From Acidobacteriota bacterium (GTDB lineage: Bacteria > Acidobacteriota > Holophagae > Acanthopleuribacterales > Acanthopleuribacteraceae): a stretch of 64,000 bases of DNA. Every line of letters begins with the position of its first letter. The first letter of the stretch is position 1. The stretch is taken from positions 62,001 to 126,000 of the forward strand of contig JAGQSC010000035.1 in the NCBI GenBank assembly GCA_020439745.1, read 5' to 3'. Position numbers and translations under genes: made by a program. A model generated the notes under the pieces. That model was given only the letters and a program-made list of their open reading frames with translations. It ran no database searches and had not been told where the DNA came from. Positions 58,721 through 63,137 of the stretch are shown in pieces.

Positions 58721-61351
58721 TTAGGGTTCCATAACCACACGAAAACCACAGTAGGAGAGGGGGGCCTGAATCCCATGCTTGCTTTCACTCGCAGCCAGAA
58801 TGGCACAGCCACCCATCGCTTTTGTGGCTGAACCATCGGTCACCCACTCGGCAAGGTTTCCGTCCAGATCGAAGGCGCCATCGGCATTGGGCTTGAATTG
58901 ACCGACTGGCTTGATCAGTGAGACGCCCTGGGGCTGTTTGGCCAAGTGGTCCTGTAAGCTTCTCGCGTCTTCCGGATTCAATGCATAACCAGCCCAATAG
59001 TCCAAGATATTACCTCCCGGCTCTTGATAGGCCTGAACTTCATCATGCTTCGGCAAACGGTAATGCTGGCTCGTCAATTCGCTAAGCCAGGCGCAATAGG
59101 CCGTGGCCTCGGCTGCCGTGATGTCGTTGGCCGGCATGTTTTCCTCGCCGGCTGGGCAGCTGTAGTCGGAGTCGAAGGCCGCAAATTGACGTTTGGTGAT
59201 TTCGAACCTTCCAATTTGGACGCGGTCGTGTGTCACCGTTTCAGGGATCAACAGCCCCTTCTCAAGTTTTCCGTAAGCACCATTAACCTGTTCGAACGAC
59301 TGACTCTTTACGATGAGGTCTAATGGCGTGTTTTCTTTGATGGGCGGCGACCTGTCTGGCCCGGTTTTGAAGAGGTAGGTGTCGAACCAAGCCAGTTCTT
59401 CTTCCACTTTTCGTTTACGGTGACCATTCTGTTGAAGGCCGTGAGGTTCTCCTGGAAACAGCACAAAACGAACGGGTGTTTTGCTGGTTTGTTGTAGCCC
59501 GCGGAAATGGAGCCAGCCCTGTTGCGTGGGTACCGCAGTGTCTTGGTCCCCATGAAAGATAAGTGTGGGTGTCGTGACCTCATTCAAGCGGTAAAAAGGC
59601 GATTTTAGGCGGTAATTATCAGGGCTATCGATGGGTGTGCCGCCAAAGTAGTAGTTATCAAAGGAAGCACCAAAGGCGCAATTTCCCCAATCAGATGCCC
59701 AGTCTACATCGCCAGCACCGGCCGAAGCCGCGAGATAGCGCTGACTGTGCACCGTGATGGCAGTGGTGAGAATGGCACCATTACTCCAGCCCATGACTCC
59801 CAGGTGGCCTTCGTCTACTAAGCCTTTAGAAATCAGCCAATCCACGCCTGCCTCGATATCTGGCACCTCCCAATCATAATAGGAGCCGTGGGCAATGGAA
59901 CTGGCGAAAGCAAGCCCGTAACCGGAGCTTCCATGGTAGTTAGGTTTCAGGATGAAAGCGCCGCGCTGGGTGTAGAGTTGATGAGGGTATGCCCAGCGAT
60001 CGCTCCAAGCGTCCAGATCCAAGCTGGCAGGACCGCCATGAATCATAACCACTAAAGGGTAACGTTTTCCCAACTCGTAACCTGCAGGGTAATAGAGCAT
60101 GCCTTCTATCCATTCATCCTTGTGTCCTTGCCACCGCACAACTTCTGTTTGAGCAGCTTGTTTGTCATTGAATGATGGATTCAGATCGGTAATGCTTCGT
60201 GCATCGTACAGTTTCGACTTCTTCAGTGAAGCGGTGTACCACTGTGTGGGAAGGCTCGCCGATGAATGGGCATAGATCACATTCAACCCACTTGGTGCCA
60301 CGATTGCGGCTTGGATCTGTCCCTGATGGGGTGTCTCGATCATCTTTCTTAAGAGAGGACCTTTTTTGTCGAAATCGTAGCGTGCCAATTTTGGATGTAC
60401 GCCATCAGCCAGTAGCGTGATGAAGCCTTGGTCCGTGAAACTAGGGCTACGGAATAGTCCGCGGTCCCAATCGATGGAAACCGGCATCTCGATTCCTGTG
60501 GCTAAGTCCACTTCATAGAGCTCGGAAACGGTCGCGAAAAAGTATCTGGAATCATCACTGCGTTCCACCTGAACAAAGAGGCGTTTACCGTTGGGGGTGA
60601 AGAAGTATGAAAATGGCAGGATCTTGTCCCGCCTTTCGAAAAGCACCACGGGATCCTGCCCCTGTCGATGCAGCATGATTTGGGGTGGTTTCGCCTGGTC
60701 GTACTCAAAACTGGCACTTTGTTCGTGAACGGTGACCATGGTGGCGCCGTCGTTCGATGCTGCAAAAGATTCAATGCGGTCCGTATTGCTCGTAATCCGG
60801 GCGATCTTCTTCGTTTCCGTGTCCAAGGTATAGATTCGAACAGGAGCTTCATGAGTCAAATCATCGATGGCTTTGCCTTGATCTTTGTTTTCTTTTTGCT
60901 GGGTCTCATGGAACCCAATGTCTTCTTGCTTTAACAAAAAGACTCTGCTGGGTCCCGTCCATTGGTAATTTTGAATGGCGCGTTTTTCCGTGGTTAAAGG
61001 CCAGGGTTCGCCACCTTGCAAGGGCAGGATCCAAAGCTGGGGTCCGTTTGGTTCGCCCGATTGTTCGCGAGCTGATAAGAACGCGATTTGACGATCGTCA
61101 AGGGACCATGACGGGGCGGTACAGCTGATCTCGCCCCGTGTCAGTTGATGGGTCTGTCCGCTAGCTAAATCCACAACGAATAGGTGATCCACAAACGCAT
61201 TCTTCTCTGAGTCAAACGCACTTTTTACATAGACAGCTCTGGTCTCGTCGTGCGAGATCGCAAAACTTGATGCAGATTCTGCCTGAATCATGTCGTTTAC
61301 GGTCCACAGGCTGCCTTCACCTGAAAGAAACCACATGCATAGAACAATCAT
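58721..61351 (-). CDS. Exported S9 peptidase fused to an FGE-sulfatase-type domain
   Basis: An 876-residue protein. A weak signal peptide ('MIVLCMWFLSGEGSLW') is followed by a beta-propeller (about residues 25-400, 'AFLSAREQSG', 'APSGLNVIYAHSS'). Then comes an alpha/beta hydrolase of the prolyl oligopeptidase S9 family: nucleophile in 'VMGWSNGAIL' (about 520), Asp in 'FHGDQDTAVP' (about 602) and His in 'PGEPHGLQ' (about 635). The last 170 residues match the formylglycine-generating-enzyme fold: 'FEITKRQFAAF', 'DITAAEATAYCAWLSELT', 'YRLPKHDEVQAY', 'GAFDLDGNLAEWVTDG' and 'YCGFRVVM'. The FGE half probably serves binding or scaffolding, as the catalytic Cys pair of true FGE is not evident. AGGAG lies 8 nt before the ATG at 61351. 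Confidence 0.9.
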   Translation of the reverse strand: MIVLCMWFLSGEGSLWTVNDMIQAESASSFAISHDETRAVYVKSAFDSEKNAFVDHLFVVDLASGQTHQLTRGEISCTAPSWSLDDRQIAFLSAREQSGEPNGPQLWILPLQGGEPWPLTTEKRAIQNYQWTGPSRVFLLKQEDIGFHETQQKENKDQGKAIDDLTHEAPVRIYTLDTETKKIARITSNTDRIESFAASNDGATMVTVHEQSASFEYDQAKPPQIMLHRQGQDPVVLFERRDKILPFSYFFTPNGKRLFVQVERSDDSRYFFATVSELYEVDLATGIEMPVSIDWDRGLFRSPSFTDQGFITLLADGVHPKLARYDFDKKGPLLRKMIETPHQGQIQAAIVAPSGLNVIYAHSSASLPTQWYTASLKKSKLYDARSITDLNPSFNDKQAAQTEVVRWQGHKDEWIEGMLYYPAGYELGKRYPLVVMIHGGPASLDLDAWSDRWAYPHQLYTQRGAFILKPNYHGSSGYGLAFASSIAHGSYYDWEVPDIEAGVDWLISKGLVDEGHLGVMGWSNGAILTTAITVHSQRYLAASAGAGDVDWASDWGNCAFGASFDNYYFGGTPIDSPDNYRLKSPFYRLNEVTTPTLIFHGDQDTAVPTQQGWLHFRGLQQTSKTPVRFVLFPGEPHGLQQNGHRKRKVEEELAWFDTYLFKTGPDRSPPIKENTPLDLIVKSQSFEQVNGAYGKLEKGLLIPETVTHDRVQIGRFEITKRQFAAFDSDYSCPAGEENMPANDITAAEATAYCAWLSELTSQHYRLPKHDEVQAYQEPGGNILDYWAGYALNPEDARSLQDHLAKQPQGVSLIKPVGQFKPNADGAFDLDGNLAEWVTDGSATKAMGGCAILAASESKHGIQAPLSYCGFRVVMEP

Positions 61352-61399
61352 TGATTCAACTCCTAGATCAAGGGCTCATTCTAGTATGAGATGTTTCAA

Positions 61400-62635
61400 T
61401 CACCATAGGTTTTGGGTGATGAACACTTTCTGATCCTGGCCGATGGCAATCCCCACGCCCTGTCTTGAGTATTGTGCGCCTAGTAAGTTGCGACGATGGC
61501 CTGGACTCTCAATCCAACCTTGAACAGCTGCTTCGGCTAGTTCTTGTTCTTGCAGCCATACATGCTCTACGTGTTTCACGCCTTTTTGTACATAGTACGA
61601 AGAGCTCTTGAATAGGTGGCCCTGGTAAATGTTCTCGCCTAAGCCAATTTTTGTTTGGCCATCCAGAGTCTTGCCAATGATCTCGTAACCTGCCGATTCC
61701 GCCCGGCGAGTGGGATCTTCTCCGCGCGGATTGACGTGGTCGATGAAGGCGTGATCGGCCATGTCCTTACTGTGCAAGGCAGCAATCTGTGCGAGTCGAT
61801 CGTCGTAGTCGAGGGAGGTGAGACCCAGTTTGGCGCGAAACAGATTCACTTTTTCATGGACGAGCAAAGCGACGCGGTTTGTATTGATGAGCGGTTGTTG
61901 GTGTGCGTTGTCAACAATGGTCTCAAATTGCTCGTCGATGGCCTTTTCAATATCTGGGTATGTCTTCCGAACGACTGCGCTGTCCAAGAGTATCCGATGA
62001 AATCCCGCTTTTACCAGGGCCTGCAGGGCAGTTCTGTTGTTGTGATTGGCAATAAATAGGTCGGCACCTGCCGCGATCAGCGGTTCAAGTGCGTCGCTTT
62101 CTCCTTCTGCTGCGGCAATATGAAGAGGCGTGCGTCCTTCATGGTCTTGTGCGTTGACCCGAGCACCAGCTTGAATAAGTGTCTTGATCGTTGGCACGTC
62201 TCCCGAATAAACGGCGTGATGCAGAGGTGTCGCGCCACGTTTGTCAATCGACTGAATTTGACTGCCTCGGTCGAGTAACAATTTGGTCAGCTTTGCGTTC
62301 CCGGCGCGTGCGGTCCAAAAGATGGGAGTTTTGTGGTCTGTACCGGAGATATTGGGGTCGGCGCCCCGTTGGAGAAGGGTGCGGGTGAGATCGGGCAGAT
62401 CTGAATAGACCGCCCAGTGCAAAGCCGTATCGCCGAAACGATTTTTAGCGTTGGGGTTGATGGTGCCCTCCAAGAAGACATGCACTTGATCTTTGTCACC
62501 CCGCATGATGGCCAATACAAACGCTTCGTCGCTATAGGGCATCAATTTCTTGACCGCTGCTTCCATTTCGGGTGCCGGACTGGTGTTGCAAGTGACCAGC
62601 AACAGACCAATCCATAGAAAGCGCGGTTTCTTCAA
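61400..62635 (-). CDS. Lipoprotein with ankyrin repeats and a CAP/SCP domain
   Basis: A 411-residue protein. The N-terminus 'MKKPRFLWIGLLLVTC' is a lipoprotein signal with lipobox LVTC, so the protein is probably lipid-anchored in the envelope. Six or so ankyrin repeats (about residues 45-220) follow, for example 'GDTALHWAVYSDLPDLTRTLL' (cut), 'GATPLHHAVYSGDVPTIKTLI' and 'GRTPLHIAAAEGESDALEPLI'. From about 265 a CAP/SCP-like domain begins ('VHEKVNLFRAKLGLTSLDYD', 'AALHSKDMADHAFIDHVNP', 'GENIYQG', 'GWIESPGHRRNLLG'), containing the paired His/Glu residues of the family. The TTG at 62635 has AAGGAG 8 nt upstream; a GTG eight codons earlier lacks an SD. It follows the S9-FGE gene's promoter side, 48 bp upstream on the same strand. 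Confidence 0.88.
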   Translation of the reverse strand: MKKPRFLWIGLLLVTCNTSPAPEMEAAVKKLMPYSDEAFVLAIMRGDKDQVHVFLEGTINPNAKNRFGDTALHWAVYSDLPDLTRTLLQRGADPNISGTDHKTPIFWTARAGNAKLTKLLLDRGSQIQSIDKRGATPLHHAVYSGDVPTIKTLIQAGARVNAQDHEGRTPLHIAAAEGESDALEPLIAAGADLFIANHNNRTALQALVKAGFHRILLDSAVVRKTYPDIEKAIDEQFETIVDNAHQQPLINTNRVALLVHEKVNLFRAKLGLTSLDYDDRLAQIAALHSKDMADHAFIDHVNPRGEDPTRRAESAGYEIIGKTLDGQTKIGLGENIYQGHLFKSSSYYVQKGVKHVEHVWLQEQELAEAAVQGWIESPGHRRNLLGAQYSRQGVGIAIGQDQKVFITQNLW

Positions 62636-63137
62636 GATAGGTTCTCCTTTTTTCTCCACTTATCTCATTTCGCATTGTCGATTGAGATGTTTCGGATTGT
62701 TTGAACGTTTTCCACGGTTTGCGCAACTATCTGTCGTCTTCTCCTAAAAACGCCCGCCCTTTATGTCTCAATACTCTCATCCAATCAAAGATCCTAAGTG
62801 GTTTAAATTAAAAGAATTGTATTTGCCAGTCGATTTGCTCAACGAAGGGCGCGATGGGTAATCTCAGATCCATCAGTTAAGGAATCGAAATGAACATTTT
62901 TTGTTAACGCCATTCAGGTTCAGGATCATTGAGTGTTTTCGGTCCGGTCCCTGAGGGTGGTTAATCACTGTTCAATATGAATGCCATGACGCACGCACCC
63001 TCAAGGCGTTCAGGCAAGAATTGAAACGTGCCTTGATGATTCATGTCGTTCGGTAAAGTGCGACTTTTTGTTGCCGGCTGACTTGTCCTCATCGAATTTG
63101 GAACTTATTGTGAAGATAAACCAAAGTGGAGAGTCCT
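62636..63137. other. Intergenic region between divergent genes
   Basis: About 500 bp, AT-richer than its surroundings, lying between two genes that are transcribed away from each other. No open frame with an SD, tRNA or strong hairpin was found; only short repeats and possible promoter fragments are visible. Confidence 0.5.

What the first reader, a model, noticed from the sequence alone, without database searches (positions are those of the whole stretch)
58721..61351. S9 peptidase fused to a formylglycine-generating-enzyme-type domain
The catalytic triad of the S9 hydrolase is complete and a ~170-residue FGE-sulfatase fold follows without the expected FGE cysteine pair. It may be a substrate-recruiting or protein-binding domain of an exported peptidase. 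I do not recall this architecture being characterised.
Basis: partly seen in the sequence, partly recalled or inferred. Interest (0 to 1): 0.6.

Follow-up and report, generated by a model that had tools for sequence, protein, structure and literature searches.

The report
Peptidase with inactive FGE-like tail
This gene encodes a protein-cutting enzyme of a known family that carries, permanently fused to its end, a relative of a sulfatase-activating enzyme that has lost the parts needed for that reaction; the pairing is real and old, and nobody seems to have studied it in the laboratory.

Summary
Window 58721-61351 (-) is one uninterrupted 876-aa frame: short hydrophobic start, beta-propeller, S9 catalytic domain (S523/D604/H637), then about 176 residues of FGE-sulfatase fold lacking the FGE cysteine pair. 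It is not an artefact. About 80 proteins with the same end-to-end architecture were found, mainly in Acidobacteriota/Aminicenantes but also in MAGs assigned to KSB1, Latescibacterota, Gemmatimonadota, Planctomycetota and others. In all 82 aligned members the triad and the elbow GWSNG[ASG] are invariant. The fused proteins form one clade (SH-aLRT 100) against S9-only peptidases of the window's class. In the 199 genomes searched, every close match to this FGE-like subtype lies at the end of such a peptidase. The domain is more conserved than the propeller, but mostly at fold-core positions: no conserved Cys pair or His. Best reading: an exported S9C-like oligopeptidase with an integral, non-catalytic pseudo-FGE module that shapes or stabilises the enzyme or binds a partner; the module's role is inferred only. 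The combination POP + 'formylglycine-generating sulfatase' was listed in a 2014 survey figure (PMC4522959), so the architecture is not unseen; the subfamily definition given here is the new part.

The parts
58721..61351 (-). Whole gene: S9C-like peptidase with C-terminal FGE-like domain, 876 aa
   Evidence: ORF; Pfam; 56% identity full-length orthologue in the same genus
61360..61364 (-). AGGAG, candidate ribosome-binding site 8 bases before the ATG
   Evidence: read from the sequence
61310..61351 (-). Short hydrophobic N-terminus (residues 1-14), weak export signal
   Evidence: mean hydropathy 2.37 over 10 residues, no Lys/Arg; 61 of 70 members have a clear hydrophobic N-terminal segment
60194..61300 (-). 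Beta-propeller (residues 18-386)
   Evidence: AlphaFold2 model mostly strands, pLDDT mostly above 90; Foldseek to S9C structures; PD40/TolB-like hits
59372..60160 (-). S9 alpha/beta-hydrolase catalytic domain (residues 398-660)
   Evidence: Pfam Peptidase_S9 E 1.2e-39
59783..59785 (-). Catalytic Ser523 in GWSNGA
   Evidence: invariant in 82 of 82; GWSN-G-[ASG] elbow
59540..59542 (-). Catalytic Asp604
   Evidence: 82 of 82
59441..59443 (-). Catalytic His637
   Evidence: 82 of 82
58724..59254 (-). FGE-like domain (residues 700-876), lacking the FGE Cys pair
   Evidence: Pfam FGE-sulfatase; AlphaFold2 pLDDT 91.5, pTM 0.89; Foldseek hits at E below 0.01 only to the FGE/PvdO/EgtB/ToxD/TvpA/PorK fold
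61400..62659 (-). Upstream same-strand gene: ankyrin repeats + CAP domain; 48 bases between the genes; same order in the congener
   Evidence: locus L007

Best explanation
The protein is an exported oligopeptidase built on the S9C plan: a beta-propeller filters short peptides into a Ser-Asp-His hydrolase domain. The C-terminal FGE-like domain is a catalytically dead (pseudo-FGE) module that is a fixed part of the enzyme. Most likely it works non-catalytically, by packing on the hydrolase/propeller body or a neighbouring subunit, so that it shapes oligomer assembly or substrate entry, or by offering a binding face for a peptide, glycan or surface partner. Shown: fusion, triad, subfamily signature, absence of the FGE cysteine pair, purifying selection on the domain. 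Inferred: export of this particular protein, peptidase activity, and the module's role.
For: Full-length relatives with the same architecture in most of 52 genome-contig loci, four of them in records titled as complete genomes or chromosomes (L052, L063, L079, L084), and in 39 of 396 phylum genomes, one copy each. Triad and GWSNG[ASG] invariant in 82 of 82. The fused set is one side of a branch, SH-aLRT 100, against 28 S9-only peptidases from the window's class. All 15 phylum-sample matches to the FGE-like profile above 100 bits lie in long frames (724-978 aa); the next match is another FGE protein at 76 bits. Conservation (mean commonest-residue share): S9 0.72, FGE-like 0.62, propeller 0.54. 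No conserved His column; after GG there are only 18-22 residues to GFR and no Cys pair, whereas FGE needs copper and its active-site cysteines are Cys336/Cys341 (PMC4505483). Structure: S9C fold, 8wt1 TM 0.87 by target; FGE fold.
Against: The model coordinates could not be inspected, so contacts between the FGE-like domain and the body are not shown; pTM of the full model is 0.76. A novel catalytic use of the fold without Cys or His cannot be excluded. Column 753 is Cys in 44 of 82 members, though it is Val/Ala/Leu in most others. No substrate or ligand is known and the gene neighbourhood gives no hint across phyla.
Confidence: 0.72

Rival explanations
1. The FGE-like domain is a recruiting domain: like the C-type-lectin fold of variable proteins, it binds a polymer, glycan or protein and brings the peptidase to its substrate or to the cell surface.
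For: FGE fold is a known binding scaffold (TvpA 2y3c is among the Foldseek matches; also PorK, a structural part of a secretion ring). Domain lacks the known catalytic residues.
Against: Recruiting domains are usually shuffled between enzymes and lost easily (general knowledge); here the subtype was found only with this one peptidase subfamily and is more constrained than the propeller. No sign of targeted hypervariation: no template copy of the 3' end in the window.
Confidence: 0.3
2. The domain is a still-active enzyme of the FGE superfamily with a changed chemistry (as EgtB and others differ from FGE), acting on the same peptide the S9 domain cuts.
For: Superfamily is chemically diverse; PvdO and ToxD are the best single-sequence PDB matches of the domain; several invariant polar residues (E717, T719, Q722, E771, N781, E835, R871).
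Against: Those residues mostly belong to the generic FGE core motifs (EVT.aQ, GN..EW, GFR); no conserved Cys pair or His in the domain; the C-terminal part that carries the FGE cysteines is shortened.
Confidence: 0.08
3. The fusion is an assembly or gene-calling artefact, or a recent chance fusion in one genome.
For: None found.
Against: Orthologue in another species of the genus (L007, 56% identity) and full-length members in many phyla, including records titled as complete chromosomes.
Confidence: 0.01

Closest known systems
S9C carboxypeptidases / acylaminoacyl peptidases (8wt1 Geobacillus, 7ep9 Fusobacterium S9Cfn, 5yzm Deinococcus)
   Same: Beta-propeller plus alpha/beta-hydrolase body; best PDB matches by sequence profile and fold
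   Different: 26% identity or less; elbow GWSNG[ASG] instead of GGSYGG; extra C-terminal FGE-like domain
Formylglycine-generating enzyme SUMF1 and its paralogue SUMF2/pFGE (1y4j)
   Same: FGE fold
   Different: FGE-like domain is shorter (about 176 aa), lacks the cysteine-bearing C-terminal segment and is fused to a peptidase
PvdO, ToxD, EgtB, CalU17, TvpA, PorK/GldK
   Same: Members of the same fold family; best fold matches
   Different: Different proteins with their own chemistry or structural role; the solved ones are not S9 fusions
Prolyl oligopeptidase + 'formylglycine-generating sulfatase' architecture of Kaushik and Sowdhamini 2014 (PMC4522959)
   Same: Lists the same pair of domains in annotated bacterial POPs (Figure 3 legend)
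   Different: Named only in a legend abbreviation; whether those proteins belong to this subfamily could not be checked; no discussion of it in that section and no experiment

Membership tests
Peptidase family S9 | Ser-Asp-His triad in that order in a C-terminal alpha/beta-hydrolase domain behind a beta-propeller | tested here: met
   S523, D604, H637 in 82 of 82; Pfam and fold
Subfamily S9C | Motif GGSYGG around the serine (PMC12871690) | tested here: not met
   GWSNG[ASG] in 82 of 82; it fits none of the S9A-D motifs listed there exactly, though body fold and sequence are nearest S9C
Subfamily S9B (DPP) | Motif GWSYGGY (PMC12871690) | tested here: not met
   Asn follows Ser; the Gly-Gly-Tyr is not kept
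Subfamily S9A (POP) | Motif GGSXGGLL (PMC12871690) | tested here: not met
   GWSNG[ASG]I
S9 peptidases | Peptidase activity on short peptides | not testable with these tools
   needs an assay
FGE-sulfatase fold (PF03781) | Profile and fold match | tested here: met
   50 of 50 members match at E 0.001 or better; Foldseek 30 matches at E 0.001 or better
Functional FGE (SUMF1) | Active-site cysteine pair (Cys336/Cys341) in a copper-dependent enzyme (PMC4505483) | tested here: not met
   no Cys pair after the GG motif in any member; segment of 18-22 residues only
EgtB-type iron enzymes | Iron-binding histidines | tested here: not met
   no conserved His column in the domain
Diversity-generating retroelement variable protein | Near-copy template repeat of the 3' end and a reverse transcriptase nearby | tested here: inconclusive
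   no template repeat of the last 600 bases within the window; reverse transcriptase not searched for genome-wide

The most novel reading that the evidence does not exclude
A distinct, undescribed S9 subfamily (GWSNG[ASG] elbow) in which a pseudo-FGE domain has become an obligate part of the peptidase and sets its specificity or assembly: the FGE fold used as a structural or regulatory module of a protease.
Probability: 0.45. Interest if true: 0.5.

Novelty: new variant of a known kind. Interest (0 to 1): 0.36.

Why it matters
It defines, with about 80 sequences, a peptidase subfamily in poorly cultured bacteria, found mainly in Acidobacteriota. It would give a clean case of an enzyme fold turned into a permanent non-catalytic part of another enzyme, and it warns against inferring sulfatase maturation from such genes.

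Tried and rejected
Assembly artefact: rejected. Diversity-generating retroelement target: no template repeat within the window. Conserved operon that would name the substrate: none across phyla; blocks are shared only inside Saccharicenans/Aminicenantes and inside small groups. Plasmid-borne relatives: only S9 peptidases without the tail, no record covering 80% of the query. Direct literature searches for S9/POP with FGE/SUMF1 gave nothing except PMC4522959.

Full report
Observation. The frame at window 58721-61351 (minus strand) reads 876 residues without a stop from an ATG preceded by AGGAG. Pfam sees Peptidase_S9 at residues 458-660 (E 1.2e-39) and FGE-sulfatase at 722-839 (E 5.9e-14, well above the curated cut-off). 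The window is part of contig C16 of a 5.1-Mb genome. Relatives labelled 'same phylum' by the genome search have the same frame length and score as public Blastocatellia and Saccharicenans records (compare L036 with L088 and L049 with L092), so the host is most likely an acidobacterium in the broad GTDB sense (inference).

The fusion is real and old. A species of the same genus has it at 56% identity over the whole length (L007). A scan of bacterial genomes returned 52 relatives, nearly all matching end to end at 36-48% identity; those that do not are mostly cut by contig ends. They come from Acidobacteriota, Aminicenantes, KSB1, Latescibacterota, Krumholzibacteriota, Gemmatimonadota, Planctomycetota, Rhodothermota/Balneolota and a few single MAGs whose assignment may be a binning error (for instance L085 'Arcobacter', which sits inside Bryobacteraceae in the tree). 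Four are in records titled as complete genomes or chromosomes. In 396 genomes of the phylum 39 have it, always one match; in the window's own class only the window's genus was found to have it full length. At E 1e-150 no S9-only member of the subfamily appeared: all matches run to the end of the profile.

The peptidase half. Ser523, Asp604 and His637 are invariant in all 82 aligned members, as is Gly-Trp-Ser-Asn-Gly followed by Ala, Ser or Gly. [quoted passage not shown] the motif here matches none exactly. S9-only peptidases of the window's class carry GxSxGG forms. In a tree of the catalytic domain the 60 fused proteins used are one side of a branch with support 100, separate from 28 S9-only proteins; these outsiders come only from the window's class, and several of them sit on long branches, so the test is limited. 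By profile and by fold the closest solved structures are S9C enzymes (8wt1, 7ep9, 5yzm). AlphaFold2 gives the full protein mean pLDDT 91, pTM 0.76.

The FGE-like half. The isolated domain is predicted with pLDDT 91.5, pTM 0.89, and its structural matches with E below 0.01 are all in the FGE fold family: ToxD, PvdO, CarF, TvpA, EgtB, OvoA, CalU17, PorK, FGE itself and its paralogue. All 50 members scanned hit PF03781. Invariant positions are mostly the generic core of the fold (E717-x-T-x-x-Q, W755, G831-[NS]-x-x-E835-W, G847, G869-[FLI]-R871). Between GG and GFR there are only 18-22 residues, and no member has a Cys pair there. In human FGE the active-site cysteines are Cys336 and Cys341 and copper is required (PMC4505483). 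No His column is conserved. So neither the FGE cysteine pair nor a histidine site is present. Yet the domain is better conserved (0.62) than the propeller (0.54), so it is needed for something. In 199 phylum genomes every match to this domain subtype above 100 bits is in a frame of 724-978 aa, as expected for such a peptidase; the next match, 76 bits, is another FGE protein.

Context. There is no conserved neighbourhood across phyla. In the window and its congener the gene follows a gene for ankyrin repeats plus a CAP domain (48 bases between the two in the window) and faces a membrane protein gene. Most relatives have a hydrophobic export signal; that of the window protein is short.

Mechanism. 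I take it to be an exported oligopeptidase with an obligate non-catalytic pseudo-FGE module. Obligate one-to-one fusion and mostly fold-core conservation favour an integral structural or gating part over a freely shuffled recruiting tag, but binding is not excluded, and no interface could be inspected.

Prior knowledge. A survey of about 3,000 prolyl oligopeptidase homologues lists 'FGS-Formylglycine-generating sulfatase' among domains found with annotated bacterial POPs (PMC4522959, Figure 3 legend), without discussion in the section on domain architectures. No experimental work was found in the held library. Hence: new variant of a known kind, moderate interest.

Noticed in passing
window 61400-62659 (-): Ankyrin repeats fused to a CAP/SCP domain, directly upstream of the peptidase and in the same order in the congener (L007); an uncommon combination in its own right.
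   Followed up: partly
G000:C51 (L002): Serine/threonine kinase fused to an FGE-sulfatase domain, also without the FGE cysteine pair after RGGA.
   Followed up: partly
G000:C25 (L003): EgtB-like FGE protein next to an EgtD-like methyltransferase: probable ergothioneine pair.
   Followed up: no
G170:C9:79816-82296: Member of the family read with ten internal stops in the search: pseudogene, frameshifts or poor assembly.
   Followed up: no
L047, L049, L055, L057, L058, L064, L081, L082: In Saccharicenans/Aminicenantes the gene is followed by a tRNA nucleotidyltransferase-like/HD-domain gene in a block conserved within that group.
   Followed up: no
L043, L048, L085: A TonB-dependent-receptor-like gene lies directly downstream on the same strand in three related loci.
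   Followed up: no
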